Source: Hyphomonas sp. Mor2
GTDB lineage: Bacteria > Pseudomonadota > Alphaproteobacteria > Caulobacterales > Hyphomonadaceae
DNA length: 64,000 nt
Reading direction: 5' to 3'
Assembly (NCBI RefSeq): GCF_001854405.1
Contig: NZ_CP017718.1
Location: forward strand, 1,488,001-1,552,000
Shown here: piece by piece, positions 33,285-49,605 of the stretch
Layout: every line of letters starts with the position of its first letter
How positions within the stretch are numbered: the first letter of the stretch is position 1
Notes under the pieces: model-generated
The model's input: the letters and a program-made list of their open reading frames with translations, nothing else
Told to the model about the DNA's origin: nothing
Database searches by the model: none
Translations under genes and position numbers: made by a program

Positions 33285-33298
33285 CAATTTTGAAATTG
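33285..33298. promoter_or_regulatory. Palindrome upstream of the sterol desaturase gene
   Basis: CAATTT-TG-AAATTG is a perfect 6-base inverted repeat with a 2-base centre, 80 bases upstream of the desaturase start and 11 bases after the regulator stop. It is AT-rich in a GC-rich setting. GTCCTCA occurs just before it and TGTCCTCA again at 33351-33358, a possible pair of direct half-sites. It may be an operator; its symmetry suits a dimeric factor better than an AraC protein. Confidence 0.35.
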
Positions 33299-33378
33299 TG
33301 CCGCCATTTTCGCGGATGCGGAGCGATTTTGCAGCGTCTGTGATGTCCTGTCCTCATCGACAAACGAGGACGATCATT

Positions 33379-34218
33379 ATGGAAATCATCCCTTTCTTCA
33401 CAGACTATCTGGGACCCCGTGTGTTCGGCGGCATTCAGTTCGAAGCCACGCGCTATGCGATGGGCACGCTGGTCACGTTCTTCGTGCTCTGGGTGGTGCT
33501 GCACCGCTTCATCGAGACCCGAAAGATCCGCAAACCCACACCGCGCGCCAAGCAGATCCAGATGGAGCTGAGACACTCTTTCAAGACGGTCTGTGTGTTC
33601 GTCGCGATGGACATTTTCATCTTCGAAGCGGCCGATATTGGCCTGTTCCAGAAATATGGTGATTTTGCCGAATATGGCATGCTCTGGTTCTGGGTCTCGA
33701 TCCCGCTTCTGATCGTCCTGCATGATGCTTACTTCTACTGGACGCACCGCGCCATGCATACGGCCCGGCTCTACAAGCGGACGCATATGCAGCACCATCG
33801 CTCACACAATCCGACGCCGTTCACAGCCTATAATTTTGCCGCCGCAGAAGCCGTGATCGAGTACATGTATGTGCCGCTCGCGCTGATGCTGATCCCGACG
33901 CACAATCTGGCGCTCTATATCGTTCTGTCGATCATGATCTTCAAAAACGCCCTGGCGCATTCGGGTTATGAAGTCTTCCCGCGCAGCTGGGCCCGGATGC
34001 CGGTTCTCGGCTGGCTGACCACGGTTACCCATCATGACATGCATCATGAGCGCGGCACCGGGAATTTCGGCTTCTATTTCACCTGGTGGGATCGCTGGAT
34101 GGGGACGGAACACCCGAACTATCTGCAGCGCCTCGACGAGCAGGAAGCCCGCGCCCAGGCGATCAAGGCCGCGCGCCGGGCGGCAAGGAAACGGCCTCAG
34201 ATGGTGCCGGCTGAATAA
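33379..34218 (+). CDS. Sterol desaturase / fatty acid hydroxylase family protein
   Basis: This 279-residue integral membrane di-iron protein starts at ATG 33379 with a GAGGA ribosome site. The open frame is longer upstream but that part is not family-like. The four histidine clusters of the family are all present: HDAYFYWTHRAMH, HMQHHRSHN, a lone His in the helix NALAHSGYE, and HHDMHHERGTGNFGFYFTWWDRWMGTEH. These bind the two irons that activate oxygen to hydroxylate or desaturate a lipid chain or sterol-like ring. The substrate is unknown. A perfect intrinsic terminator follows, so it is a single gene or the second of a regulator-enzyme pair. Confidence 0.9.
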   Translation: MEIIPFFTDYLGPRVFGGIQFEATRYAMGTLVTFFVLWVVLHRFIETRKIRKPTPRAKQIQMELRHSFKTVCVFVAMDIFIFEAADIGLFQKYGDFAEYGMLWFWVSIPLLIVLHDAYFYWTHRAMHTARLYKRTHMQHHRSHNPTPFTAYNFAAAEAVIEYMYVPLALMLIPTHNLALYIVLSIMIFKNALAHSGYEVFPRSWARMPVLGWLTTVTHHDMHHERGTGNFGFYFTWWDRWMGTEHPNYLQRLDEQEARAQAIKAARRAARKRPQMVPAE

Positions 34219-34246
34219 GCAAAACCGTCTCTTGGTAAACTCGAAC

Positions 34247-34279
34247 GGCCGGAGCAGCCCCTTGCTCCGGCCTCTTTTT
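34247..34279 (+). terminator. Intrinsic terminator after the desaturase gene
   Basis: GGCCGGAGCA and TGCTCCGGCC form a perfect 10-base stem with loop GCCCCT, followed directly by TCTTTTT. It lies 28 bases after the desaturase stop and 67 bases before the sulfatase start, so the two genes are transcribed separately. This is the clearest rho-independent terminator in the window. Confidence 0.9.
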
Positions 34280-34346
34280 ATCCCAGTGTCTCAAACTCCC
34301 CCACGTCACAATTGACATTCAGCTTGCCGATTCATACGAGGATTGG

Positions 34347-36110
34347 ATGCTGAATCGATTGATTGCCACCGCCCTGCTCTCCACTTTCGGTTTCGGAGCC
34401 ATCGCGACGGGCGCCGCCCAGGAGGCGACACCGCCAAATGTCGTGGTCATGCTGGTTGATGACGCCGCCCTGATGGATTTCGGCATTTATGGCGGCGAAG
34501 CCCGCACGCCCAATATCGACAAATTGGCGCGGCGCGGCGCGATGTTCACACAATATCGAACCTCGCCGCTCTGCTCACCATCGCGGGCCATGCTGCTCAC
34601 CGGTATGGACAACCATCTGACCGGCATCGCCACCATCCCGGAAGTGCTCCCGCCTGAACATGTCGGCCAGCCCGGATACAGCATGGCGCTGGAGCCTGGC
34701 GTGCTGACCCTGGCGGCGCGGCTCAAGCCTGAGGGGTATCAGACCTTCATGACCGGCAAGTGGCATATGGGCAGCGGCCAGAATGACCTGCCCTCAGCGC
34801 ACGGCTTCGACCGGTCGTTCGCCCTGGACGCTTCGGGTGCCGACAATTGGGAAGACAAGTCCTACATGCCCTATTATCACGACGCGCCGTGGTATGAGGA
34901 TGGCAAAGCCGCCGCGCTTCCCGACGATTTCTATTCATCTGAGTTCATTGTCGACAAGATGATCTCCTATCTGGATGGCGCAGATAGAGAACAGCCCTTC
35001 TTCGCCTTTCTTGGCTTTCAGGCCATCCACATCCCGGTCCAGGCCCCGCCTGAATTTACCGCCAATTATGACGGCGTGTATGATGAAGGCTGGCACGTCC
35101 TGCGCGATGCGCGTCACCAGAAAGCCATGGCTCTGGGCCTGATCCCGGACGGGGCGCCGCTCGCGCCGATGCCGGAAGGATCCCGCGACTGGGACGAGCT
35201 GAGCGACGCCGATCGGACCGTCTATGCCGCGCGCATGCAGGTGAATGCCGGCATGATGGAGGCCATGGACCTGCACATTGGTCGTCTGGTCGAGCATTTG
35301 AAGCAGACCGGCACCTATGAGAACACGATATTTGTCATCACTTCCGACAATGGCCCCGAGCACAATCGCGGTGACAATGACTCGCGGCTGGCTTTGTGGA
35401 TGCGGTTCAACGGCTACCATGTCGATCTTGAAGGGGTCGGCGAACAAGGCAGTTGGGGCTTTATCGGTCCGGAATGGGCGAATGCCGCCGCCTCTCCCGG
35501 CGCGCTCTACAAGTTCTATATGGCCGAAGGCGGCATTCGCGCGCCGCTTATTCTGGCGGGGCCTGGCATCCAGGCCCAGCAGGTCGACGCCATGGCCCTG
35601 GTCAGCGACGTCGCCCCGACCCTGCTCGACATGATCGATCCGGCGATCGAAGCCGAAGCCATGACCGGACGCTCCCTCCTGCCGCTGTTGATCGGCGAGC
35701 AAAGCCACGTCTACAGCCCGGATGAAGCGATCGGGATGGAAGTGTCCGGCAATTCAGCGCTCTATAAGGGCGACTTCAAGATCACCCGGCACATGCCGCC
35801 GACCGGCGATGCCACCTGGCGTCTATACAACATGGCCAGTGACCCGGGCGAAACGCGCGACCTGTCCGAGGCCATGCCGGACAAAAAAGCGGAACTTCTG
35901 GCAGATTATCAGGCTTACGCGACCCGCGTCGGGGTCCTCGAAATGCCGGACGGCTATGATTCATTTGAGCAAATCGAAGCCAATACGTTGGCCAAGCTTC
36001 GCAAACAGTATGGCTGGATCGTCCTCCTCGCCGGACTTGTCGTCTTGCTTCTGCTCTACGGTTTGTGGCGCCTCATCCGGCATTTTTACCTGCGTCCCAA
36101 GCAAACCTGA
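34347..36110 (+). CDS. Membrane-anchored arylsulfatase-type sulfatase
   Basis: This 587-residue protein has a signal peptide (residues 1 to about 24, ending GAAQ), an alkaline-phosphatase-fold sulfatase domain and a C-terminal membrane helix (GWIVLLAGLVVLLLLYGLWRLI, about 557-578) followed by a basic tail. Metal ligands Asp38-Asp39 lie in VVVMLVDDA. Cys76 in SPLCSPSR is the C-x-P-x-R site that a maturase turns into formylglycine. TGKWHMG and VITSDNGPEHNRGDND hold the further active-site Lys, His, Asp and Asn. The catalytic domain should face the periplasm while held in the inner membrane. Substrate is not evident. No maturase gene is in this window. Confidence 0.9.
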   Translation: MLNRLIATALLSTFGFGAIATGAAQEATPPNVVVMLVDDAALMDFGIYGGEARTPNIDKLARRGAMFTQYRTSPLCSPSRAMLLTGMDNHLTGIATIPEVLPPEHVGQPGYSMALEPGVLTLAARLKPEGYQTFMTGKWHMGSGQNDLPSAHGFDRSFALDASGADNWEDKSYMPYYHDAPWYEDGKAAALPDDFYSSEFIVDKMISYLDGADREQPFFAFLGFQAIHIPVQAPPEFTANYDGVYDEGWHVLRDARHQKAMALGLIPDGAPLAPMPEGSRDWDELSDADRTVYAARMQVNAGMMEAMDLHIGRLVEHLKQTGTYENTIFVITSDNGPEHNRGDNDSRLALWMRFNGYHVDLEGVGEQGSWGFIGPEWANAAASPGALYKFYMAEGGIRAPLILAGPGIQAQQVDAMALVSDVAPTLLDMIDPAIEAEAMTGRSLLPLLIGEQSHVYSPDEAIGMEVSGNSALYKGDFKITRHMPPTGDATWRLYNMASDPGETRDLSEAMPDKKAELLADYQAYATRVGVLEMPDGYDSFEQIEANTLAKLRKQYGWIVLLAGLVVLLLLYGLWRLIRHFYLRPKQT

Positions 36111-36226
36111 GAATCTTTACTCGCATGACGCGTATCTGGGTGACACGGCAAGAAAAAGCGCAATAAAACTTGGCATTAGGTACTGTGATTGCGAAAACAG
36201 TTGCCGTAGAGAGGGTCTTGGTCATT

Positions 36227-38014
36227 GTGACTGAAGTGTTTGAACGACGCGCCGTGGCGGTGCTGTCGACCGATATGGTCGGCTATAGCCGAATGATGGC
36301 GCGCGATCCCGATGCCACGGTTCACGCCATCCGGTTCTGCGAAAGTATTGTCCGCAACAGCGCTGAATCCTTTCGTGGACGCCTGTTTTCCAGGGCTGGC
36401 GACGGGTTCCTGGTCGAATTCTCGGGCGAATCCGATGCCTTGCAGTCCAGCCTCGATATTCAAGCCCAGTTGCGCCAGCACAATTCTGATGCTGCGACTG
36501 ACAAGCAAATCTGGCTGCGCGCAGGGATCCATTTCGGTGAGGCCATCGTTGATAATGGCAACCTGCATGGCGATGTCGTCAATATCGCTGTCCGGCTTCA
36601 GGAATCGGCGCCCGCTGGCGGCACCCTGATTTCAGATGTCGTGAATATGGCCGTCCCCGAAACAGAGCGCTCCAAGGCCACAAGCATCGGCGTGATGAGG
36701 TTCAAACACTATCCCCGGCCGATTGAAGCGTTCGAGCTGGAAGTGCCTGGCGCGGACGGCGCTGTGCCCATCGGAGAGTCGTTTGATATTGACGTGGAGA
36801 AACCGGTCTCCGGCTTCGGAGGCCGCTCGGCGATCGCCATATTCCCGCTCAACAATGCCTCTCACAGCCTCGAGCATGATCACATCGCTGAAGGCTTCAG
36901 CGACAGCCTCATCATCGCACTCTCACACATGCGCCAGTTCCCGGTGATTGATCGCAATTCGAGTTTTTCGCTGGACGAAGCTGACGTCCCGCATCACGCC
37001 GCCGCCGCGCGTCTTGGCGCGCGATACTTTGTGACCGGTGAATTTGCCGATCACGGCGCGCAATTCCGCATTTCGCTGCGCCTGATGGACGGATCCACCT
37101 CGCAAATGCTGTGGTCCGACAGCTATGTCCTGGAACCAGATGAAGTGATCGCGGCGCTGGAGGATGTCTGCAATGTCGTCGTCGGCACGCTGGAAGGTCA
37201 ACTCGAGCAGGCCGAGACCGTTCGCGCGCGGGCCAGTCGCCTCAGTCGGTCCAATATCAGTGATCTGGTCTGGCGGGGCCGCTGGCACCTGAACAAGCTG
37301 ACGCACAAGGACTCCGAACTCGCCCGCGAGATGCTCGAGGCCGCCGTCGAACAGGATCCGGAGAATTCCGAGGCGCTCATCCAGCTCAGCTTCTGGCACT
37401 GGCTCGACTGCTGGACCCAGCGCAAGCCGCAGCAAAATGTCGAGGTCTTTCACGAGCTGGCCCAGCGGGCCCAGGTGTCCAATCCGCATGATAGCCGCGG
37501 GCACTTTCTGATCGGTGCCGCCGAAATCCTGCGTGGCGCCCCGGAACGCGCGCTCGGGCATTTTGAGGAATCCCTGGTGCTCAATCCCAGCCACGCGCAT
37601 GCCCATTCACAGATTGGCAGCTGTCACATGCTGATGGGACACCCGGATCTTGCCATCGCCAGTCTGGAAGCTGCGTTGCGCCTCAATTCGCTGGACTATT
37701 ATCTGTTCGTGACCCTTGGCGAACTCGCCTGCTCGCATTGCATGGCGGGGAATTATGACCGCGCCATCTCACTCGCGCGGCAGTCACTGGACCTGCGCCA
37801 ATCCTATTGGCATGCCCGCATGACCGAAATCACCGCGCTGGTTCAGTCCGGCCAGGACCGACGCGCAGGCCAGGCGCTGGACGCCCTCCTCATCCGGCGG
37901 CCCGACTTTTTTGACAAACCCTATATCGACTGGCTGCCGTTTCAGGACGCGAGCTGGAACCGTTTTTTCCGCGAGAGCCTGGCGAAGGCGCAAGACGCGG
38001 ATCGGGGGCAGTAA
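36227..38014 (+). CDS. Class III adenylate/guanylate cyclase with TolB-like and TPR domains
   Basis: From GTG 36227 the protein has 595 residues (a TTG at 36170 would add 19). Residues 1-180 are a class III cyclase domain: VLSTDMVGYSRMM with the first metal Asp, AGDGFLVEFSG with the second, and GDVVNIAVRLQE with the transition-state Asn and Arg. Catalytic activity is therefore plausible. Next comes a TolB/FlgO-like module (SAIAIFPLNNASHSLEHDHIAEGFSDSLIIALS...GARYFVTGEF...QMLWSDSYVLEPDEVIAALEDV), then TPR-like repeats to the end. This three-part layout is widespread in alphaproteobacteria. There is no membrane helix, so the enzyme is cytosolic. The signal it reads is unknown. Confidence 0.85.
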   Translation: MTEVFERRAVAVLSTDMVGYSRMMARDPDATVHAIRFCESIVRNSAESFRGRLFSRAGDGFLVEFSGESDALQSSLDIQAQLRQHNSDAATDKQIWLRAGIHFGEAIVDNGNLHGDVVNIAVRLQESAPAGGTLISDVVNMAVPETERSKATSIGVMRFKHYPRPIEAFELEVPGADGAVPIGESFDIDVEKPVSGFGGRSAIAIFPLNNASHSLEHDHIAEGFSDSLIIALSHMRQFPVIDRNSSFSLDEADVPHHAAAARLGARYFVTGEFADHGAQFRISLRLMDGSTSQMLWSDSYVLEPDEVIAALEDVCNVVVGTLEGQLEQAETVRARASRLSRSNISDLVWRGRWHLNKLTHKDSELAREMLEAAVEQDPENSEALIQLSFWHWLDCWTQRKPQQNVEVFHELAQRAQVSNPHDSRGHFLIGAAEILRGAPERALGHFEESLVLNPSHAHAHSQIGSCHMLMGHPDLAIASLEAALRLNSLDYYLFVTLGELACSHCMAGNYDRAISLARQSLDLRQSYWHARMTEITALVQSGQDRRAGQALDALLIRRPDFFDKPYIDWLPFQDASWNRFFRESLAKAQDADRGQ

Positions 38015-38102: not shown

Positions 38103-41100
38103 GTGGCCGACGCGAAGTATTATGATCGAATAAAAGAGCTCGAGCGTATCGAAGCTGGAAAGCCTGCGAACAGGCGCGCGATCGATGACAGTGGCTTCGA
38201 TTTTTCTGTGCTGAAGCCCAAATCCTTGTTCGGCAAGATACTCGCCAAGTTTATTCAGCAAAGATGGCTTTATGCCATTTTGAGGATCTGGTTTCCCGTC
38301 CTCAAGATTGACGGCGTCTACTTCGTCACCCGCTATGATGACGTCAGATATATTCGCGAGAATGATGCTCGCTTCGAGGCGCCTTATGGTCGGGAAATGG
38401 ACGCCCTGACCGGCGGCGCGGGTTTCCTGCTCGGTATGCGCCGTGGCCCGGACTATGATCGACAATTTCGCTGCGTCATGCACGGCGTCGCCGGTCAGCC
38501 GGCAGCCTTTCAAGCCGGAGATCTGGACAAGTTCGTGATCCCGAAAGCGGCCGCGACGGCGGATCAGCTTATCACGACCGCCGCAGGCGAGTTCGATGTC
38601 ATCGAGGATTATCTCAACCGAATTGCGGTCGAGACCTGCTGTCATCATTACGGCCTGGAGCCGGAAGACCCCAATGCGTTTGCACGTTGGCTGATGTCGC
38701 TGAGTGCGCTCCTCTTCGCCGACTATAAGGGCGAGACGCATGTGCGAGACCTCGCCATGGCCGGGGCAAAGCGCATTCACCCGGTCACCGACAAGGCCAT
38801 CGCGCAAGCCCGGTTCTGCCTTCAGAACCCGGCCGACGCTGCGGTGCGTCACGGACAGGCCTATTGCGACTGGATCTCCGACACGGTGATCGGACGCCTC
38901 GTCGCACAGCAACTCGCGGATCCGTCGATCGGGCCGAGCGATGCAGATATTCGCGGCATGATCATGGGCCTCGCCGTCGGCTTTGTTCCAACCGGCGCGG
39001 GCGGCGGCGGCGGCATTCTCGAGGTCTTGTTGAGCCGGCCGGATGCCATGAAACAGGCGCGCGTCGCCGCCGAAAGCGGCGATGACAAAGCGCTCGAAGG
39101 GATCCTGCTTGAGGCGATGCGCTTCAAGCCCCCCATTCTGCCGGGCTTGCCGCGTTATGTGGTCGCCGGTGCAGACACCGCTCCGACGGGCACAGGCAAC
39201 ACGCGCGTCGACAAGATCCCGGCAGGCTCCACCATTCTCGCGGCTTCTTTCTCGGCCATGTTCGATGGTCGCAAGTTTGGCGGCGATATCAAGCGCTTTG
39301 ACGGAACCCGGCAGCTCGGCACGGATGATCTGTCCTTCGGGGGCGTGGGCTTTCTCCATTATTGCATTGGCGAGCAAATCTTCCGCGCCATGATCACGCA
39401 ATCCTTCAAACACCTGCTTCGGTGCGAGGACCTGAAACCGGCGCCTGGCAAAGCCGGCAAGATGGAGCGGACCGGGCCGTTCCCTGTGCATATGCAGATG
39501 GTGTTCACGCCAGAGACCGGGCATCGCCAACACGCCATGCTGACGATCTGCCTGCCGCTGGAACGGCCGGACGATGCGGCGCGGATCAATCGTTGGCTCG
39601 ACGAACTGGAAAATCCGGCCTCGGACGCTGCCAGAGCGCGCCTGATGGCGCAGCCGCACCTTCACTTCACCCACATGACCGCGATCGCCGACGACGCGCG
39701 CAATATTCCCGCAAACCTGCTCATTGAACTGAACGCAGATGGAGAGGCGGACACGGCCATTTCCGCCTTCGTGGACGGGTTGTGGGACGTGGACCCGTTT
39801 CAGCAAATCATGAGCACCGCACTCGGCCTTGTCACAGCGACGCCCGACAAGGTGAAGGCCGGGCTGAAGGCGCATAATTATCAACTGAAAATCACGCCCT
39901 GGCCGGATCCGAAGCACAAGACGATGGGCCTGAACTTCAATGGCTTGCTAGAGCAGTCCGTTCCCCAGATTGAACAGGAGCAAGCGCTTGCCGGGGCCGC
40001 TCGCAACCACCTCGACACGCTCTTGCAGAGGCGCGGCGGCAATGATCCCTCAGCGCGTGAGGCGGTCGAGTTCATTCGCCGTCAGCTTAGCCATGGTGAT
40101 CACGCGGCGAAGCTGATCCAGCCGCTGCAGAAATCTCCCGCCGTGTCGCGGCGCCCGACCTTGCCGCTTGGTGAAACCCTCAGCCTGTACATGAAGGATC
40201 GCGGCCTCCAGGTCGCGTTGCTCGGCGGCATGGGCCTGTTCTGGCTCGCCTATCTGGTCTTTCTCTACGGTGGTCTGCCTCGAGACGTCACCTGGGCAGG
40301 CCTTGGAAACATGGCCGTGAATGTGGTTCATATCGTGCTGGCCTTTGGCGTGTTCTATGGCTTTCACGGCTTGCGACAGCTTTTTTTTGGGCGCGGGTCC
40401 AAGACGTCGCTTCTCGGTTGGTCGATCGCCACAACACTGGCCTATCTTGTTTTGACCCCCATCGGAATTTGGGCACCAGGCGCGCTCGACCATGTGGCCC
40501 GCCCGGATTATCTCGCACGGCTTTACGCACTCGGCGCGCTGGCCTGGAAGCTGGCGCTCTCAGCGGTCTTCGGCGTGATCCTGTGGCTGGTCACGGTGCT
40601 CGGCTTCGGCTGGCTGTTCCTGCAGCTTCTGAAAGCCAGCGAAGCGGGCATGCCGCCGGAAGACACCGATCTCGATCTGGAGAAATTTGACGCGATCATG
40701 CAGCGGGAGAACCAGTCCGATCACGCGCAGAACCATATCATTTTCGTCACGCCCCTGAAAGACAATCCCAAATGGTTGCGGCGTGTGACCATGTTTATCG
40801 GCTTCTATTTCATCAAGACGCTGGTGCTTTATCGCTTCCGATTCGGCTTCGTCCTGGATCTCGGCACCATCCACTTTGCCCGCTGGTTCCTGCTGCCCAA
40901 GTCCCACACAATGGTCTTCTACTCGAATTATGATGGCAGCGGGGAATCCTATTTCGAGGATTTCGTTACCAAGGCGCGCTGGGGCCAGACCGGGGTCTGG
41001 AGCAATGGCAAAGGATTCCCGGAGACCGAGAACCTCCTGTTCAAGGGTGCCAAGGATGCGACGCGGTTCAAACGCTGGATCCGGCACCATCAGCAGGTCT

Positions 41101-42752
41101 CCCGCTTCTGGTTCGCCCGCTTCAAGGACCTGTCGACCCGGGATATCCGGCGCAATGCGATGATCTGCGACGGCCTCGCGAAAGCCAGGAGCGATAGCGA
41201 GTATCGCGCCCTGATCGAGCTGATGACGACGCGTCCACGTGATGAAAACACGCTCGAGACGCGCGAGATCCAGAGCCTGATCCTGCGCGGCATGGGCAAT
41301 CTCAAGGCCGCCGAGATGGTCACGCTTAGCTTTCCCGAGGCTGGCGAGGCAGGAGACGCCGCTCTGTCCACCTGGTTGGCGGACCTTTCGGGTCTTTCAA
41401 CTCAGCCGAAACATGCACGCGCCACGTTTGATACACGCCTCGACAAGCACGAGACGCAGGCGATCAATGTCGCGATCTCGCCGGGCGGTCTGCGACGGCT
41501 TCGCCTGCAGGACGTGCATCATGTGCACAAGGATCTGCGCAGCGACGGGTTTGCCTCCCTGCCCGCCGCCTTTCGGGGCGGAATGACCAGTCCAGGGCGG
41601 CAACAGATCCTTGGCGACGATAACCACGCCGACTGGCATTGGGGCGGCGATGCGGAGCCAGATGCGGTTCTTATGGTCTATGCCGAAACAGAGACAGAGC
41701 TCGAGACCCTGGTCGCGCGCGAGGTTGCCCTCCTGAAGGCGGCTGGCTTCACCGTCGGTCCGCAAATCCGGACGAAGACGATCACCGAGAAGCCGATGCG
41801 CGAACCCTTCGGCTTTGTCGACGGCGTCTCGCAGCCGGTCATTCGCGGCAGTGCGGGCAGCCTCGCCCCGCACAATCAGATACATGTCGTGGATCCCGGC
41901 GAATTCGTCCTGGGATACCGGGACAATACGGAATATTTCCCGACCTCCCCAATGGTGAACGGCCTGGCGCCCGGCGCGGCGCAATTGCCCTCGCTTCCCG
42001 ATCAGGCGCTCGACGACTATCCGGCCTTCGGAAACGATCCGCACACCGGGCCGCGCGATCTGGGCAAGAACGGGTCTTTCCTGGTGATCCGTCAGCTCGA
42101 ACAGGATACGACCGGATTTACAACCCATCTGACCACGCAGGCAAAGAACGTGCGCGAGGCGTACGGGCTGGATTATGTTGACGCGGACTGGATCGCGGCG
42201 AAGCTGATGGGGCGCTGGAAGAATGGCTCTTCCATTTTGCGCTATCCACACAAGCAGAACCCGTCTCCGCCTGAGACTCTCAGCGTTGCCGACAATACGT
42301 TCCAGTTTGGCGCTGAGGACCCTCAAGGCGTGAAATGTCCGTTCGGCGCGCATATTCGGCGGGCCAATCCTCGTGACAGCCAGGATCCGGCAATCCCCGA
42401 TCGGCAGATCGAACTGTCCAACCGGCACCGCCTGCTGCGCCGCGGACGCGCCTATCACAAGGACGGCAAGGACGGGCTCCTGTTCATGTGCCTGAACGCG
42501 AACCTTGAGCGCCAGTTCGAGTTCGTCCAGCAAACCTGGCTGAACAGCCCGCGCTTCCATGGCCTGCAGGCCGAGTATGACTCGATCGCCGGTCAGGCAC
42601 CGATGGCGGAGAACAGGCTGTCCATTCCAACAGCAGCAGGGCCCATTCAGGTCAAAGGCCTGCAATCCTTCGTGACGGTGAAAGGCGGCGGCTATTTCTT
42701 CATGCCGAGCCGGTCGGCACTGCGTTTCTTCAGCGCGTTTGTGGCATCCTGA
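38103..42752 (+). CDS. Cytochrome P450 - membrane domain - DyP-type peroxidase fusion
   Basis: This 1549-residue chain starts at GTG 38103 after a strong ribosome site. Residues 1-440 are a cytochrome P450: I helix MIMGLAVGFVPTGAG (285-300), E337-A-M-R340 as the ExxR motif, and heme ligand Cys421 in FGGVGFLHYCIG, one residue longer than the usual loop. The I helix lacks the normal acid before Thr297. Residues 455-560 and 918-1025 are two related modules (PHLHFTHM...LLIELNADGEAD and GTIHFARW...VFYSNYDGSGESY). Helices at about 703-723, 735-757, 768-790 and 812-840 cross the membrane. Residues 1100-1549 are a DyP peroxidase with catalytic Asp1240 in GFVDG, proximal heme ligand His1417 in CPFGAHIRRANPRD, and distal Arg candidates in RLLRRGRAYHKD. 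Both heme sites look intact. A concerted peroxide-driven lipid oxidation is an inference. Confidence 0.9.
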   Translation: MADAKYYDRIKELERIEAGKPANRRAIDDSGFDFSVLKPKSLFGKILAKFIQQRWLYAILRIWFPVLKIDGVYFVTRYDDVRYIRENDARFEAPYGREMDALTGGAGFLLGMRRGPDYDRQFRCVMHGVAGQPAAFQAGDLDKFVIPKAAATADQLITTAAGEFDVIEDYLNRIAVETCCHHYGLEPEDPNAFARWLMSLSALLFADYKGETHVRDLAMAGAKRIHPVTDKAIAQARFCLQNPADAAVRHGQAYCDWISDTVIGRLVAQQLADPSIGPSDADIRGMIMGLAVGFVPTGAGGGGGILEVLLSRPDAMKQARVAAESGDDKALEGILLEAMRFKPPILPGLPRYVVAGADTAPTGTGNTRVDKIPAGSTILAASFSAMFDGRKFGGDIKRFDGTRQLGTDDLSFGGVGFLHYCIGEQIFRAMITQSFKHLLRCEDLKPAPGKAGKMERTGPFPVHMQMVFTPETGHRQHAMLTICLPLERPDDAARINRWLDELENPASDAARARLMAQPHLHFTHMTAIADDARNIPANLLIELNADGEADTAISAFVDGLWDVDPFQQIMSTALGLVTATPDKVKAGLKAHNYQLKITPWPDPKHKTMGLNFNGLLEQSVPQIEQEQALAGAARNHLDTLLQRRGGNDPSAREAVEFIRRQLSHGDHAAKLIQPLQKSPAVSRRPTLPLGETLSLYMKDRGLQVALLGGMGLFWLAYLVFLYGGLPRDVTWAGLGNMAVNVVHIVLAFGVFYGFHGLRQLFFGRGSKTSLLGWSIATTLAYLVLTPIGIWAPGALDHVARPDYLARLYALGALAWKLALSAVFGVILWLVTVLGFGWLFLQLLKASEAGMPPEDTDLDLEKFDAIMQRENQSDHAQNHIIFVTPLKDNPKWLRRVTMFIGFYFIKTLVLYRFRFGFVLDLGTIHFARWFLLPKSHTMVFYSNYDGSGESYFEDFVTKARWGQTGVWSNGKGFPETENLLFKGAKDATRFKRWIRHHQQVSRFWFARFKDLSTRDIRRNAMICDGLAKARSDSEYRALIELMTTRPRDENTLETREIQSLILRGMGNLKAAEMVTLSFPEAGEAGDAALSTWLADLSGLSTQPKHARATFDTRLDKHETQAINVAISPGGLRRLRLQDVHHVHKDLRSDGFASLPAAFRGGMTSPGRQQILGDDNHADWHWGGDAEPDAVLMVYAETETELETLVAREVALLKAAGFTVGPQIRTKTITEKPMREPFGFVDGVSQPVIRGSAGSLAPHNQIHVVDPGEFVLGYRDNTEYFPTSPMVNGLAPGAAQLPSLPDQALDDYPAFGNDPHTGPRDLGKNGSFLVIRQLEQDTTGFTTHLTTQAKNVREAYGLDYVDADWIAAKLMGRWKNGSSILRYPHKQNPSPPETLSVADNTFQFGAEDPQGVKCPFGAHIRRANPRDSQDPAIPDRQIELSNRHRLLRRGRAYHKDGKDGLLFMCLNANLERQFEFVQQTWLNSPRFHGLQAEYDSIAGQAPMAENRLSIPTAAGPIQVKGLQSFVTVKGGGYFFMPSRSALRFFSAFVAS

Positions 42753-42762
42753 GCGCGACCCC

Positions 42763-43551
42763 TTACCCGCTCAACGCGCCCAGAATGGCGTCCGCCGTCT
42801 TCGCGGCATTCTGATCGAGCACGGAGCCCTGGATATCCAGCCGCTCAACCAATTGCGCACCGGAGATCAAACTGGCGGCCCGACGTGACGGTTCGAGCAA
42901 GCCGGATTGTGTGGCGATGATCGTAGCCGAGCGCTCCAGACGGTCGAACTGGCGCTCAACGTCGCAGGTAAAGGCCGCGTGAAACGTCGCGTTTTGGCGC
43001 GGGCCGTTGGCGACCTGGTCCGCGAACATTTCAAGACTGCGCTCCAGAGGTTGAGTCTCCACCCGAGACGTGACGGCGCGTTCCCAGGCTTTTTCCTGGC
43101 TGGTCAGGTCCAGCGTCGGCTCATATGGCGCGCCGGTCATAGGCAGGTACTTCGCCCGCGTTTCCGGGTCGAACGCCGGGACGTCCACGAGCGCGATGTG
43201 CGAGACCTGATCTGCGAGACGCAAGGCCACTTCGACCGCGACGAGACAGCCGGAGTGAAAACCGGTCAACTGGACCGGGGACTCGCCTGAGAGGGCTCCG
43301 ATCAACGCGCACATGCTTCGCGCATAATCCTCGATCGACGGTGTGGGAGTGTCGCCATCCGATCCCCCCTGGCCCGGATAATCCGGTGCGATCACGCGTC
43401 GACCCCGGGCCAGCAAGGGCAGGATCGCCGAATAGGCGATGCCACTGAACGGCGCTGGCGAGAAACAATAGAGATCCGGCGCACCCTCACCCGTCATGCG
43501 CCAGTGGATCTGGCCTTCCGGCCCGTCGCTATACCCTTTTCGAATGCTCAT
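42763..43551 (-). CDS. Alpha/beta-fold hydrolase
   Basis: The 262-residue protein starts at ATG 43551, which overlaps the MFS stop as ATGA; a longer open frame only reads into the transporter. The fold is visible as RRVIAPDYPGQGGSDG (strand after the oxyanion turn), then GFHSGCLVAVEVAL, the nucleophile elbow G-F-H-S-G, with Ser as nucleophile. VDVPAFDPE follows in the acid region. The catalytic His at the C-terminus is not obvious: the end reads LVERLDIQGSVLDQNAAKTADAIL, without a clear His. The enzyme may be an esterase, a C-C hydrolase or an inactive relative. It closes the leftward VOC-MDR-VOC-MFS series. Confidence 0.75.
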   Translation of the reverse strand: MSIRKGYSDGPEGQIHWRMTGEGAPDLYCFSPAPFSGIAYSAILPLLARGRRVIAPDYPGQGGSDGDTPTPSIEDYARSMCALIGALSGESPVQLTGFHSGCLVAVEVALRLADQVSHIALVDVPAFDPETRAKYLPMTGAPYEPTLDLTSQEKAWERAVTSRVETQPLERSLEMFADQVANGPRQNATFHAAFTCDVERQFDRLERSATIIATQSGLLEPSRRAASLISGAQLVERLDIQGSVLDQNAAKTADAILGALSG

Positions 43552-44906
43552 GCCGCGCTCGACTCTGAGGATTGAGAGGCATCGAGCCGGTTCATCTGCG
43601 CGATATAGAGCCGCCGAATGATCGGCAGAAGCAGGAACGGGATCAGGCCATACATTAGCGGCACCGCCCCGACAGCGAGATTGAGATTGTCCTCGCCAAA
43701 CACGCGCGAGGACAGAATCCCGACGGTCGGCGGTCCCAGCCACAGCCCGGCCATGGAGATGGCCATATAGTAGAGCGCCACGACCTGTCCGCGGATCTGT
43801 GCCGGTGTGATCAGCAGCAGGCCGGTCACGCCGATGCAGGAGACCATGCCGATCCCGATCGTGTTGATGCAGAGCACCGCATAGGCCGTCCACCCGGTCG
43901 GCATCAGCATCGCAATAGCACCGGTGGGAACCATGATCAGGAATCCGGCAATCAGTATGCGCAATGGTGCATCGCGCATCCCTGCCTGCGTCCAGCGATC
44001 TGATAGGACGCCCCAGAGCAGAATATTTGCCGGTCCGATGGCCAGGATGGCGGTCGCGTTGACGAAGGCATAATACTCCGTCTCCCAGCCCCAGACCCGC
44101 TTGAAGGTCGAAGCGAGATAGCCCTGGCTATAAGCGATGATCGTCATCACGCAGATCAGCGACACATAGCCGAGATAGGTCCCCCAATGGCGCGCCACAT
44201 AGCCGAGCGCGTCGCTCATATCATTGCCTTTGAGGCTGTCATCTTCGATCACCGTCAGACGCCGTTCCGGTTCGCCGAGGAAAAAGAACCAGGCCGCGAC
44301 CAGGAGGCCCGGAATGCCGATCATGAAGAAGGCCGTCTGCCACGGGGCGAGTGTGCCGAGGATCGGGATATCGATCGCCTGTGTGCTCTTGGCCCAGATC
44401 AGGATACCGCCGCCCAGGAAGCTCGCCGCGGCCGCCCCTATGGTCAGCGCCATGGTGTAGAAGGCAATGGGTTTGCCGCGCTCTTCGGGCGGAAAGCTGT
44501 CGCCTATCATCGAGAAGGCGGCCGGGCTGAGCGTCGCTTCTCCGGCGCCGACGCTGAGACGCGCCATGAACATCTGCCAGAAATTCTGGGCGACGCCCGA
44601 CAGGGCCGTCGCGACCGACCAGAAGGCGATCCCGATCCCGACCAGCCAGGTCCGCCGGACGCGATCCACGAGCCAGCCAATGAACAGGCCAGAGGTCGCA
44701 TAGACGATCGAGAAAGCCGGGCCGAGGATCCAGCCAATCTGTTCATCGGAGAGGTTCAGGTCGGCCTTGATCGGCTCGATCAGCAGCTCAATGATCTTGC
44801 GGTCCGCATAGCTGAAAACATAAGCCACCGTCAGCGCAATGACGAGGATCCAGCCTTTGCTCGCCGGAGGATAAGGTTTTCCAGATTCGCGCGCAGGTTC
44901 ACTCAC
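43548..44906 (-). CDS. MFS transporter (spinster-like group)
   Basis: This 452-residue permease has about 12 membrane helices. The N-terminal half reads VLVIALTVAYVFSYADRKIIELLIEPIKADLNLSDEQIGWILGPAFSIVYATSGLFIGWLVDRVRR, and GWLVDRVRR is the MFS motif A between helices 2 and 3. The Y-x-D-R-x-I-E-x-L-I-E-P-I-K start is typical of a group common in sphingomonads and hyphomonads whose members lie beside catabolic genes. The start is GTG 44906, overlapping the VOC gene stop (GTGA). The cargo is probably an organic acid or lipid-like compound processed by the neighbouring enzymes, which is inference. Confidence 0.88.
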   Translation of the reverse strand: MSEPARESGKPYPPASKGWILVIALTVAYVFSYADRKIIELLIEPIKADLNLSDEQIGWILGPAFSIVYATSGLFIGWLVDRVRRTWLVGIGIAFWSVATALSGVAQNFWQMFMARLSVGAGEATLSPAAFSMIGDSFPPEERGKPIAFYTMALTIGAAAASFLGGGILIWAKSTQAIDIPILGTLAPWQTAFFMIGIPGLLVAAWFFFLGEPERRLTVIEDDSLKGNDMSDALGYVARHWGTYLGYVSLICVMTIIAYSQGYLASTFKRVWGWETEYYAFVNATAILAIGPANILLWGVLSDRWTQAGMRDAPLRILIAGFLIMVPTGAIAMLMPTGWTAYAVLCINTIGIGMVSCIGVTGLLLITPAQIRGQVVALYYMAISMAGLWLGPPTVGILSSRVFGEDNLNLAVGAVPLMYGLIPFLLLPIIRRLYIAQMNRLDASQSSESSAA

Positions 44907-47012: not shown

Positions 47013-47456
47013 TCAGGCCTTGCTCGCGTGGCTCTCTTCAATCTCGTGGATCTCACGGCCGAGGAAGAAGGAAATCGCCGTGCGGATCAGCACCAGCAGG
47101 CCGACAAAAATCAGATCGGTCAGCTCGCGCGTGATCACCGTGTGGATGATGTCCGAGGCAATCATGAACTCCAGGCCGGTCAGGATATAGGTCCCGAGTA
47201 TCGTCCGCGCGGCGCTGAGATTGGACAGGTTGCGCGTCAGCCCGATGCCATGGCGCAGGCCTGCGAGCAGGCGAAACAGCGCAATGAAAAAGCCAAACAG
47301 GATCAGCGCCACACCAATCAGATCGATGCAGATGGCGAGCCCTTCCAGGGCATGCGCGACGGGTTCATCCAGGCCGAAGGGCAAATGCTCCAGCGAGGTA
47401 CCGCCGGTCATGCCCTCCATGATGTGGCCGCCCTGCTCTGTCTCCGAGCCGCTCAT
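47013..47456 (-). CDS. DUF1622 membrane protein
   Basis: The 147-residue protein starts at ATG 47456 (or GTG 47459), overlapping the stop of the Rieske-TPP gene. Three membrane helices are clear: AICIDLIGVALILFGFFIALFRLL (about 41-64), ARTILGTYILTGLEFMIASDIIHTVI (about 84-109) and DLIFVGLLVLIRTAISFFLGREIHEIE (about 114-140). The R-x2-LG-x5-GLE-x4-DII-T pattern and IRT-x4-FFL-x-REI ending fit DUF1622. The function of this family is unknown. Its coupling to the TPP enzyme suggests a membrane partner for the redox cluster. Confidence 0.8.
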   Translation of the reverse strand: MSGSETEQGGHIMEGMTGGTSLEHLPFGLDEPVAHALEGLAICIDLIGVALILFGFFIALFRLLAGLRHGIGLTRNLSNLSAARTILGTYILTGLEFMIASDIIHTVITRELTDLIFVGLLVLIRTAISFFLGREIHEIEESHASKA

Positions 47457-49450
47457 CACAAGAGCTCCGCATCGGTGATGACCTCGACCAGAGACGGGCC
47501 ATCATGCGCGATGGCTTTGGCGAGAGCCGCGTCGAGCTCTTCGCGGGTCTTGACCAGTTCGCCCATGCCGCCGCAGGAGCGGGCAAATCCGGCAAAGCTC
47601 GGATTGACCAGGCTGGTCTGCCAGACTTCGAACTCGGCCGCTTTCTGCTCTTTCGAGATCTTGCCCAGCTCGGAATTGTTCATCAGGACATGGGTGATGT
47701 TCATCCCGTATTTGACCGCTGTGGTGAACTCCATCGCGTATTGGCCGAAGCCGCCATCGCCGGAGACGGAGATGACCTTGCGGCCTTTATAAGCCCCCTC
47801 TTCCTGCGTCGCGGCCCAGGCGCCCATGGCCGCCGGGAAGGAAAAGCCGATGGAACCGAGATAGCCCGACATCAAGACGCGCTGCTGCCCGGTCGGCTCG
47901 AAATAACGCCCGAAGGAATAGGTATTGTTGCCGACATCGACGGGCAGGATGGCATCGGCGGGTGTGGCGCGGGTCAGCGCTTCGAACAGCGCCGCGGCAG
48001 AGACGCCCTTGCCGCGATCTTCGCCGACGCGGCGGTCTTTCTCGGCGCGCCAGAGGTTCCAGCGCTCAGCGACCTCGCCGCGGAGATCCTGAGCCGCGCT
48101 GCCACTGTCTTTCAACGCCGCGCTGAACAAATCCGCCGTCACACCGACATCGCCCATGACAGGCACGGTCACCGGGTGGCGCTTGGCCAGCCGCATCGGA
48201 TCAGTATCGACCTGAATGGTCGGCGCGCCTTCATAAATGCCGGTATGGTCCGAAAAGCTCGATCCGAAGACCAGCAGCAGATCGGCTTCATTCATGAACC
48301 AGCTGGCAATCGGGGTGCCCGAGCGGCCCATCACGCCCGCCGCGAGCGGGTGGTCATCGCCGATCTGGCCCTTGGCCTTGAACGTGGTCGCAATCGGCGC
48401 GCCAAGCTGTTCCGCCAGCGCTGTGACCTCGACCATCCCCGTCAGCGCGCCATAGCCGACAATGATCATCGGCCGCTTGGCCCCTTTGAGCAGATCGACC
48501 GCCTGTGTCACAGCGGACGGCGGCGGCGCGACGGCCATGTCGGCCATACGTCCGGCGGGGCCATAGGCTTTCGCGTCTTTTGCTGCAGGCTTGGGCTGCA
48601 CATTGTCCGGGAAGACCAGATGCCCGACACCGCGCTGGAGAATGGCGGTCTTGATCGCCTGCGTCATCAGCAGCGAATGATCAGAGGTCAGGTGCACGGT
48701 CTCAGAGAATTCCGCCACCGCCTCGAACGCCGCTTCGAGATCAATATCCTGGAAGGCATGCACGCCGACCACCTGATCCTGAACCTGTCCGGTCAGCGCC
48801 AGCGCCGGCGCGCCATCGACCTTGGCATCCCAGAGCCCGGTCAGGAGATTGGTCGCGCCCGGGCCTGCAATGGTCAAAGCCGCCGCCGGGTGGCCGGTCA
48901 GCTTGCCATAGCCGGAACACGCAAAGGCCGCTGCCCCTTCATGGCGGATACCGTAATAATTGAGCTTGCCCTCGGCTTCCTGCACGCGCAGCGCATCAGC
49001 GAGGCCGAGATTGGAGTGGCCAACCATGCCGAACACGCTGGTCACGCCCCAATTGGTCATCGTCTCGGCCATGACATCGGCAATCGTGCGCTCGCGCGGG
49101 GGCAGCGCGGGCACGCCGACATAGATGCCATCGTCGCGAATATCGACATCGAACATGTCCTGGCCGGTATCTTCATGACCGCCTGGAGGTTTGCCGGTCA
49201 GCGGATCAAAGTCCCAGCCATGCCACGGGCAGCGCAGCCAGCATTTGCCGTCTATGCCGTCTTCAATTGAGCCCTCGCCGAGCGGACCGCCCTGGTGCGG
49301 GCACTTATTGTCCATGGCCGCATACTGGCCCTGAAAGTGGACCAGCGCGACGGATTGGGTGCCAGCGGTCGCGGATTTCACGCGCCCGTCGGCCACTTCA
49401 TCGGTTTCGGCGACCTTATGCCAGATCAAAGTTGTTTTGTTTTCAGACAT
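47456..49450 (-). CDS. Rieske - thiamine-diphosphate enzyme fusion
   Basis: The 664-residue protein starts at ATG 49450 behind GAGGGGAG. Residues 1-112 are a Rieske domain with Cys50-x-His52 and Cys74-x-x-His77, a full [2Fe-2S] ligand set. Residues 118-664 are a ThDP enzyme of the acetolactate synthase / pyruvate oxidase type: TIADVMAETMTNWGVTSVFGMVGHSN, catalytic Glu171 in YYGIRHEGAAAF, a central nucleotide-fold domain, and the ThDP-Mg motif from Gly564-Asp-Gly to Asn591-Asn592 (GDG-x24-MNN). In oxidases of this type the decarboxylated intermediate is oxidised through FAD; here the Rieske centre may accept the electrons. The donor keto acid is unknown. It is divergent from the Rieske-GltB-like gene. 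Confidence 0.9.
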   Translation of the reverse strand: MSENKTTLIWHKVAETDEVADGRVKSATAGTQSVALVHFQGQYAAMDNKCPHQGGPLGEGSIEDGIDGKCWLRCPWHGWDFDPLTGKPPGGHEDTGQDMFDVDIRDDGIYVGVPALPPRERTIADVMAETMTNWGVTSVFGMVGHSNLGLADALRVQEAEGKLNYYGIRHEGAAAFACSGYGKLTGHPAAALTIAGPGATNLLTGLWDAKVDGAPALALTGQVQDQVVGVHAFQDIDLEAAFEAVAEFSETVHLTSDHSLLMTQAIKTAILQRGVGHLVFPDNVQPKPAAKDAKAYGPAGRMADMAVAPPPSAVTQAVDLLKGAKRPMIIVGYGALTGMVEVTALAEQLGAPIATTFKAKGQIGDDHPLAAGVMGRSGTPIASWFMNEADLLLVFGSSFSDHTGIYEGAPTIQVDTDPMRLAKRHPVTVPVMGDVGVTADLFSAALKDSGSAAQDLRGEVAERWNLWRAEKDRRVGEDRGKGVSAAALFEALTRATPADAILPVDVGNNTYSFGRYFEPTGQQRVLMSGYLGSIGFSFPAAMGAWAATQEEGAYKGRKVISVSGDGGFGQYAMEFTTAVKYGMNITHVLMNNSELGKISKEQKAAEFEVWQTSLVNPSFAGFARSCGGMGELVKTREELDAALAKAIAHDGPSLVEVITDAELL

Positions 49451-49605
49451 TAATTGTCTCCCCTCGCTTGCTTTCCGCTGGCCTATCGAAAACAGTAAGC
49501 TATGGCATATCAAAAGTCCTTCACGTTTTTTTGGGCTCTTGTGATTGGTCAGTCATTTGTTCGCTCGATAGAGGCGAAGCAATTGCTTGAGAGGGGAGCA
49601 CTCGA
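49451..49605. promoter_or_regulatory. Divergent promoter region of the Rieske cluster
   Basis: This 155-base gap drives two diverging operons. Each leader has CGATAG followed by a GC/AAGC stretch and GAGGGGAG before the ATG: leftward at 49488 down to 49451, rightward from 49565 to 49605. The elements therefore form an inverted repeat around the gap (CTATCG 49483-49488, CGATAG 49565-49570), with CGATAG 38 and 41 bases upstream of the two start codons. The middle is AT-rich, with a T7 run at 49526-49532. This fits shared control of both sides by one factor, or it may be chance similarity of ribosome sites. Confidence 0.5.

What the first reader, a model, noticed from the sequence alone, without database searches (positions are those of the whole stretch)
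38103..42752. Two heme enzymes in one chain: cytochrome P450 - membrane block - DyP peroxidase
The sequence shows an intact P450 (Cys421, E337-x-x-R340) and an intact DyP domain (Asp1240, His1417) in a single 1549-codon frame, joined by four or more membrane helices. P450 I helix lacks the usual acid that delivers protons for O2 activation, as in P450s that act on hydroperoxides. Fungal Ppo-type oxylipin synthases join an unrelated heme peroxidase to a P450, so this could be a bacterial parallel: the DyP domain oxidises a lipid or handles peroxide, and the P450 rearranges the product. I know of no described bacterial enzyme of this design. The reaction is inference.
Basis: partly seen in the sequence, partly recalled or inferred. 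Interest (0 to 1): 0.88.

Follow-up and report, generated by a model that had tools for sequence, protein, structure and literature searches.

The report
Two-heme membrane enzyme: P450 plus DyP
A bacterium makes one long membrane protein that carries two unrelated heme enzymes, a cytochrome P450 and a DyP peroxidase; it is the fused form of a widespread set of neighbouring genes for which I found no published description, and it may be a bacterial way of processing oxidised lipids.

Summary
ORF 38103-42752 is one frame encoding a P450 (E337, R340, C421) and a DyP peroxidase (D1240, H1417, R1443), catalytic residues intact. It is no joining error: 15 other single-chain homologues were examined (named ones in Hyphomonadaceae, Vineibacter, Reyranella and plasmids of Novosphingobium, Pararhizobium, Sulfitobacter).

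The 'membrane block' is more than a linker. It holds a domain (LinkB) that is the best conserved part of the chain among congeners, matches no Pfam or NCBIfam family, and is homologous to a separate protein. In 39 of 42 unfused relatives the parts are four adjacent genes: LinkB-type, membrane protein, DyP, P450. Where a LinkB/DyP locus lacks the P450, a distant catalase-like gene stood beside DyP in 5 of 8; two near-identical plasmid clusters of that kind lie beside oleate hydratase. All 16 fused genes have a TPR gene, mostly with a nucleotide-cyclase domain, directly upstream; in the window and four congeners a fatty-acid hydroxylase gene lies further upstream.

Best reading: a membrane-bound, peroxide-driven module acting on a lipophilic, probably unsaturated-lipid, substrate.

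The parts
38103..42752 (+). Whole fused gene: P450 - LinkA - membrane segments - LinkB - DyP peroxidase, 1549 aa
38103..39527 (+). Cytochrome P450 domain, residues 1-475 (E337 39111-39113, R340 39120-39122, C421 39363-39365; Pro296 38988-38990 in the I helix)
   Evidence: PDB profile search; conservation
39528..40172 (+). LinkA, residues 476-690: no Pfam/NCBIfam match
40173..40670 (+). Membrane block, residues 691-856, four hydrophobic segments; least conserved part against four congeners
40671..41237 (+). LinkB, residues 857-1045: no known family, most conserved part against four congeners (IHFARW 923-928, SNYDGS 941-946), homologous to gene 1 of the four-gene operon
41238..42749 (+). DyP peroxidase domain, residues 1046-1549 (D1240 41820-41822, H1417 42351-42353, R1443 42429-42431)
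36170..38014 (+). Class III nucleotide cyclase domain (Pfam 22.1 bits, cut-off 21.9) plus TPR repeats, directly upstream; a homologue or its TPR part precedes all 16 fused genes examined
33298..34218 (+). Fatty-acid hydroxylase superfamily protein; homologues upstream of the fused gene in four congener loci (in pieces in L021)
34347..36110 (+). Sulfatase; homologues at the same place in four congener loci
42763..43893 (-). Alpha/beta hydrolase, convergent neighbour; homologues downstream in two congener loci (L023, L024), a fragment at the contig end of L021

Best explanation
The gene encodes a membrane-anchored, two-heme enzyme formed by an old fusion of proteins that most relatives encode as separate adjacent genes (LinkB-type protein, membrane protein, DyP peroxidase, P450). 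SHOWN by sequence: one frame, both sets of catalytic residues conserved, homology of LinkB to operon gene 1, the conserved operon, a TPR gene directly upstream of all 16 fused genes examined. SUPPORTED: a single origin of the fusion (P450 tree; the DyP tree does not rule it out). INFERRED: heme in both domains; LinkA, LinkB and the helices hold the two hemes at the membrane and bind a lipophilic substrate; the DyP site uses peroxide to oxidise or reduce that substrate (most likely an unsaturated lipid or its hydroperoxide); the P450, which lacks an I-helix acid, converts the product without the usual electron chain. In related loci a catalase-like protein takes the P450's place. The cyclase/TPR gene (with a Crp/Fnr gene in six of 16 loci) probably controls expression through a cyclic nucleotide.
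For: Single chain in the window and 15 other loci. P450 tree of 66 rows: the 16 fused ones form one clade, 100/100. Split operon g1-g2-DyP-P450 in 39 of 42 loci L030-L071; DyP and P450 frames overlap or open within 32 nt in 40 of 40. LinkB = gene 1, hhalign 98.2%, E 3.5e-14. LinkB 91-95% identical to four orthologues against 69-81% for the two enzyme domains. Of 20 LinkB/gene-1 loci read from the class and phylum samples (L111-L129, L133): DyP in 20, P450 in 12 (divergent in L114), catalase-like in 5, neither in 3, both in 0. A second DyP-P450 chain with the opposite order (L116) and a DyP frame that continues into a catalase-like stretch (L124). Catalase-like/LinkB/DyP clusters divergent from oleate hydratase, 3-hydroxyacyl-CoA dehydrogenase and acyl-CoA thioesterase on two plasmids. 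Fatty-acid hydroxylase and sulfatase genes upstream in the window and four congeners. No relative of the L139 ferredoxin or its reductase in the other 86 stretches searched, while L139, which has both, has a P450 with the normal AGHETT motif. GST gene directly after the P450 in 25 loci.
Against: EryK lacks the acid yet is a hydroxylase, and Thr297 is kept in 48 of 51. The P450 beside the G411 LinkA-LinkB-DyP gene has an acid; that of G021 is of a different type. Only single-sequence searches with one ferredoxin type were made, so other redox partners are not excluded. The catalase-like label is weak: of eight such proteins or stretches scanned, Pfam Catalase reached its cut-off only in L129, was below it in L139 and L140, and was absent in L121, L122, L133, L141 and L124; the rest rests on a profile from three plasmid proteins and on record annotation. 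Three of 20 loci have neither partner. L030 has the P450 alone; L036 keeps the P450 with part of gene 1 but no DyP. The two oleate hydratase plasmids are close copies (they share a protein accession). LinkA = gene 2 is weak (hhalign 20%). In the DyP tree the fused rows are not a clade of their own: they share a 19-row group (99) with three LinkA-LinkB-DyP proteins, and the P450 tree carries a long-branch warning.
Confidence: 0.42

Rival explanations
1. Ordinary monooxygenase with a bodyguard: the P450 hydroxylates a hydrophobic compound using redox partners encoded elsewhere, and the DyP destroys peroxide leaked by the P450.
For: EryK and 5vws lack the acid and the former is named a hydroxylase; Thr297 kept in 48 of 51; the G411 P450 has an acid.
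Against: 8 of the 20 sampled LinkB/DyP loci have no P450 to guard, and 5 of these have a second peroxide-type protein instead. No relative of the L139 ferredoxin or reductase near the others (other types not sought).
Confidence: 0.27
2. Detoxification or breakdown of aromatic or other xenobiotic compounds: DyP oxidises them to radicals, P450 and GST finish the job.
For: GST gene after the P450 in 25 loci; a homologue on a plasmid of N. aromaticivorans (that it degrades aromatics is recalled) and in Skermanella from hydrocarbon-contaminated sand; two Glyoxalase/Bleomycin resistance/Dioxygenase superfamily genes (PF00903) further downstream in the window.
Against: No aromatic-catabolic gene named among the features of the eight plasmid stretches read; the other loci were not annotated gene by gene. 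Lipid genes near two plasmid clusters and upstream in five congener loci.
Confidence: 0.16
3. LinkB is the main functional domain (enzyme or lipid binder) and the hemes supply or remove peroxide for it.
For: LinkB is the best conserved part, ten columns are invariant over 29 aligned sequences, His924 among them, and DyP is with it in 20 of 20 loci while the second partner varies.
Against: No known fold or family for LinkB; conservation may only reflect a protein-protein interface.
Confidence: 0.12
4. Sequencing or assembly artefact joining two genes.
For: None found.
Against: Sixteen single-chain loci (two nearly identical, one cut by a contig end) in different assemblies; purifying selection in all domains.
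Confidence: 0.01

Closest known systems
Fungal Ppo / linoleate diol synthase type oxylipin synthases
   Same: A heme peroxidase domain and a P450 domain in one chain (PMC9579011: start of the abstract seen in the listing); possible hydroperoxide hand-over.
   Different: The peroxidase here is a DyP (D1240/R1443/H1417), not the cyclooxygenase-like domain; order reversed (P450 first; the fungal order is from the abstract's 'N-terminal cyclooxygenase-like heme'); extra LinkA, membrane and LinkB domains; activity untested.
Coral allene oxide synthase-lipoxygenase fusions and plant CYP74
   Same: Either a catalase-related protein or a P450 acts on lipid hydroperoxides there (starts of abstracts of PMC5617202 and PMC8124189 seen in the listing); here too P450 and catalase-like proteins exchange places beside DyP.
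   Different: No lipoxygenase was seen in the features and scans at hand (not searched for on its own); the constant partner is DyP plus LinkB; the P450 profile's shown PDB matches are bacterial P450s; the catalase-like label is weak.
DyP peroxidases 8re3/8re2 and 7anv (D-type)
   Same: Homology over the whole domain and the three catalytic residues.
   Different: Those entries are single-domain chains of 442-488 aa; this one is fused and follows a LinkB domain.
Bacterial P450s 5vws and EryK (CYP113A1)
   Same: P450 homology, ExxR, Cys loop, absence of the I-helix acid.
   Different: Single-domain chains; AGHLTT/AGHITT instead of the [VI]-P-T found here.
CYP152 peroxygenases (recalled)
   Same: Non-canonical acid/alcohol pair.
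   Different: CYP152 has Arg-Pro (recalled); here hydrophobic-Pro-Thr, without Arg.

Membership tests
Cytochrome P450 superfamily | ExxR and heme-ligand Cys in its loop | tested here: met
   51 of 51 sequences; PDB profile hits; Pfam p450 for a split relative, none for this protein itself
DyP peroxidase superfamily | Distal Asp and Arg, proximal His | tested here: met
   64 of 64, aligned to 8re3; which residue plays which role is recalled
DyP peroxidase superfamily | Curated cut-offs | tested here: inconclusive
   NCBIfam TIGR01413 75.6 bits, below 100.5; Pfam Dyp_perox_C 21.1, above 20
Fungal Ppo oxylipin synthases | Cyclooxygenase-like heme peroxidase/dioxygenase domain | tested here: not met
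   Pfam at E up to 1 gave only Dyp_perox_C
Fungal Ppo oxylipin synthases | Turnover of unsaturated fatty acid to hydroperoxide and rearranged product | not testable with these tools
   needs enzyme assay
CYP152 peroxygenases | Arg-Pro in place of the acid-alcohol pair | tested here: not met
   no Arg at 295, 296 or 297 in 51 sequences (the CYP152 motif itself is recalled)
CYP74 clan | Sequence kinship to CYP74 | not tested
   none of the 60 PDB rows shown is named CYP74 or allene oxide synthase; 410 further rows were not shown and no direct comparison was run
Self-sufficient P450s (CYP102/CYP116 type) | Reductase domain in the chain | tested here: not met
   no flavin or iron-sulphur domain in Pfam or NCBIfam scans
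Known anti-phage defence proteins | PADLOC model match | tested here: not met
   no match for four proteins

The most novel reading that the evidence does not exclude
An undescribed bacterial oxylipin-type system: a LinkB/DyP core acts at the membrane on unsaturated lipids and hands a peroxide-derived intermediate to an exchangeable second heme enzyme, either a P450 without the O2-activating acid or a catalase-like protein, the same two choices that plants and corals made independently. LinkB is a new lipid-binding or catalytic domain, and in one old lineage the whole pathway was fused into a single membrane chain under cyclic-nucleotide control.
Probability: 0.3. Interest if true: 0.93.

Novelty: categorically new. 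Interest (0 to 1): 0.8.

Why it matters
Two unrelated heme enzymes in one bacterial membrane chain, found in several alphaproteobacterial families, would be a natural design for passing a reactive intermediate between hemes. The system is present in named cultured strains (for example N. aromaticivorans DSM 12444 for the fused form, Ruegeria and Phaeobacter strains for the split form), so its chemistry can be tested directly. It also exposes a conserved domain, LinkB, without a family in Pfam or NCBIfam. 'Categorically new' refers to the architecture and gene set; P450 and DyP themselves are known families, and the claim of no prior description rests on six searches of one open-access library.

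Tried and rejected
Artefact by frame joining: rejected. 'Linker only' reading of the middle: rejected, LinkB is homologous to a separate protein and is the best conserved part. Acid-less P450 as proof of hydroperoxide chemistry: rejected as proof, because of EryK and the G411 relative. I-helix register: HMMER's alignment to 5vws and EryK puts Pro296 on the alcohol position; the ungapped match to the G411 relative (GAIDTT against GAIPTI) suggests instead that Pro296 sits on the acid position and Thr297 is the alcohol. In both, neither 295 nor 296 is acidic in 51 of 51. LinkB as a copy of the DyP N-terminal domain: the profile comparison matched only the start of DyP itself. LinkA = gene 2: not established. 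The gene-2 protein in plasmids: no match. Defence system: no PADLOC match. Literature: eight searches, six for this system and two for parallels; I saw only listings with the beginnings of abstracts and read no paper. Earlier notebook entries give 26-27 GST loci; the count is 25.

Full report
OBSERVATION. The frame 38103-42752 on the + strand encodes 1549 residues without a stop. The GTG start is supported by the matching N-termini of four congeners. The C-terminal part is a DyP peroxidase; the N-terminal part is a P450 that Pfam misses in this protein but that profile comparison with solved structures finds clearly. E337, R340 and C421 are present in 51 of 51 P450s aligned, D1240, H1417 and R1443 in 64 of 64 DyPs aligned. 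I chose these two sets from the relatives at hand; they are not a random sample.

IT IS ONE REAL CHAIN. Of 150 genomes searched as relatives, the own one included, 17 had a match of any kind; four others of the same genus (75-80% identity) and two of the same family (45%, nearly identical to each other) have the full-length chain, and a third family member (44%) has it cut by a contig end. A scan of genome contigs returned 54 loci: nine fused (seven of them the same genomes again, plus Vineibacter terrae and Reyranella sp. CPCC 100927), 42 unfused (L030-L071), and three that I left out of the counts (L072 and L074, distant P450s without the other parts; L073, all four parts but cut at the contig end). 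The phylum sample added three fused loci of one genus that I read (L118-L120; a fourth genome, G574, was not fetched). Plasmid records: eight of 87 matching records cover at least 80% of the query; I read three of these, N. aromaticivorans pNL2, Pararhizobium qamdonense and Sulfitobacter pontiacus. Counting the window, 16 fused chains were examined. In a tree of 66 P450s they form one clade (100/100), with a long-branch warning from the program; in a tree of 80 DyPs they share a 19-row group (99) with three LinkA-LinkB-DyP proteins and are not a clade of their own, though one origin is not ruled out. Public records call the three proteins 'cytochrome P450' or 'Dyp-type peroxidase domain-containing protein'. 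Against four orthologues pN/pS is 0.05-0.38 in every domain.

THE MIDDLE IS NOT JUST A MEMBRANE LINKER. Residues 476-690 (LinkA) and 857-1045 (LinkB) match no Pfam or NCBIfam family; profiles of the middle part and of gene 1 found no convincing solved structure (best E 0.004, over the LinkA-membrane part). LinkB is the best conserved part: 91-95% identity to four orthologues, against 78-81% for P450, 69-78% for DyP, 72-77% for LinkA and 58-69% for the membrane block. Four hydrophobic segments lie in 704-835 of the window protein; four other fused chains showed one to three between the enzymes by the same simple scale.

THE SPLIT FORM. Of the 42 loci L030-L071, 39 have gene 1, gene 2, DyP and P450 (bit scores over 60), in that order in the listing; in L032 (genes 1 and 2) and L065 (DyP and P450) some of these are interrupted. 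The exceptions are L030 (P450 alone), L036 (P450 with part of gene 1 in one frame, no DyP) and L044 (gene 2 below my threshold). In 40 of 40 with DyP the P450 frame overlaps the DyP frame or opens within 32 nt. They are mostly Rhodobacteraceae/Roseobacteraceae, plus sphingomonads, a Pseudohongiella and cyanobacterial MAGs. Gene 1 is homologous to LinkB (hhalign 98.2%, E 3.5e-14). Gene 2 carries a membrane segment (one example) and resembles LinkA in place, but the profile match is only 20%. A GST gene directly follows the P450 in 24 of the 42 and in L125. Other joinings exist: LinkA-membrane-LinkB as one protein followed by DyP and P450 (L112, L123), LinkA-LinkB-DyP with a separate P450 upstream (L075, L111), and a DyP-P450 chain in operon order (L116).

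EXCHANGE OF THE PARTNER. The class sample (385 genomes) gave 9 with a LinkA/LinkB match and the phylum sample (398) 18 with a gene-1 match, the own genome included in both; of the 24 other genomes I fetched the surroundings in 20 (L111-L129, L133; not G156, G574, G750, G760). In these 20 a DyP is present in 20, a P450 in 12 (divergent in L114), a catalase-like protein in 5 (L121, L122, L124, L129, L133), neither in 3 (L113, L115, L126), both in none. L117 is the same locus as L071. 'Catalase-like' means a match to a profile of three plasmid proteins that their records call catalase family; Pfam Catalase reached its cut-off only in L129, was below it in L139 and L140, and did not appear in L121, L122, L133, L141 or L124. 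In L124 the DyP frame continues into such a stretch. On plasmids of Sphingobium cloacae and Agrobacterium pusense, close copies of each other, a catalase family gene, a LinkB-like gene and DyP are divergent from TetR, acyl-CoA thioesterase, 3-hydroxyacyl-CoA dehydrogenase and oleate hydratase; on a Methylorubrum plasmid the set is preceded by ferredoxin, reductase and a P450 with the normal AGHETT motif. I read only these three of the similar plasmid hits. No relative of that ferredoxin or reductase was found in the other 86 stretches; other kinds of redox partner were not sought.

REGULATION AND NEIGHBOURS. A TPR protein lies directly upstream of all 16 fused genes; in 12 the match reaches the N-terminal part, in two it is cut by the contig end (L025, L026), and in two (L134, L136) only the TPR part matches. 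Pfam finds the cyclase domain in six of seven tested (window, L022, L027, L118, L120, L135; not L028). A Crp/Fnr gene lies directly downstream in six of 16 (L026, L027, L118, L119, L120, L135), with cNMP-binding and Crp domains in the one scanned. In the window the order is AraC regulator, fatty-acid hydroxylase superfamily protein, sulfatase, cyclase/TPR gene, fused gene; hydroxylase and sulfatase homologues also precede the fused gene in the four congener loci L021-L024, the hydroxylase being in pieces in L021, and in none of the other stretches at like strength.

MECHANISM. Shown: architecture, conservation, operon, neighbours. Inferred: heme binding, location at the membrane, substrate class, order of steps. 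The I helix has no acid at 295 or 296 in 51 of 51, Pro296 in 50 of 51 and Thr297 in 48 of 51. This fits a P450 that does not activate O2 in the usual way, but EryK shows that a hydroxylase can lack the acid, and P450s beside two LinkA-LinkB-DyP genes do not share the motif. The catalase-like partners, the oleate hydratase neighbourhood and the fatty-acid hydroxylase gene favour lipid peroxide chemistry; I put the whole reading at a little over 0.4.

COMPARISON. Fungal Ppo enzymes join a cyclooxygenase-like heme peroxidase domain to a P450 domain (listing of PMC9579011); the peroxidase here is a DyP, so this is not a Ppo member, though it may work like one. Coral AOS-LOX and CYP74 show that catalase-related proteins and P450s can both act on lipid hydroperoxides (listings of PMC5617202 and PMC8124189). 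Six searches of the open-access library found no account of a DyP-P450 fusion or of this operon; most subscription papers, and preprints, are not covered.

VERDICT. A real, conserved two-heme-type membrane protein and gene set for which I found no description; function still open.

Noticed in passing
window 47456-49513 (-): One 685-aa frame joins an N-terminal Rieske [2Fe-2S] domain to a thiamine-pyrophosphate enzyme with all three domains; it looks unusual to me.
   Followed up: no
window 33298-36110 (+): Fatty-acid hydroxylase and sulfatase genes upstream of the cyclase/TPR gene, also found in four congener loci L021-L024.
   Followed up: partly
L032 4357-6132: Maricaulaceae EIL42A08: genes 1 and 2 are each interrupted by an in-frame stop while DyP and P450 are open.
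   Followed up: no
L036 7641-9278: One frame holds part of gene 1 followed by the P450; DyP and gene 2 were not found nearby.
   Followed up: no
L130 5599-9750, L131 6073-10671, L132 5883-9983: Very long DyP proteins (1367-1533 aa frames) without LinkA/LinkB or P450 matches in the same bacterial family, each with a Crp-like gene nearby.
   Followed up: partly
L115 5367-9028: Three LinkB-type proteins in a row before one DyP gene, with no P450 or catalase-like match nearby.
   Followed up: no
L138 6197-9127: Rhizobium leguminosarum plasmid: LinkA-LinkB-DyP protein (annotated hypothetical) among nuclease, CHAT-domain and restriction genes.
   Followed up: no
window 49549-51126 (-): 525-aa frame without any Pfam match at E 0.001; may or may not be a gene, as a frame of 538 aa overlaps it on the other strand.
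   Followed up: no
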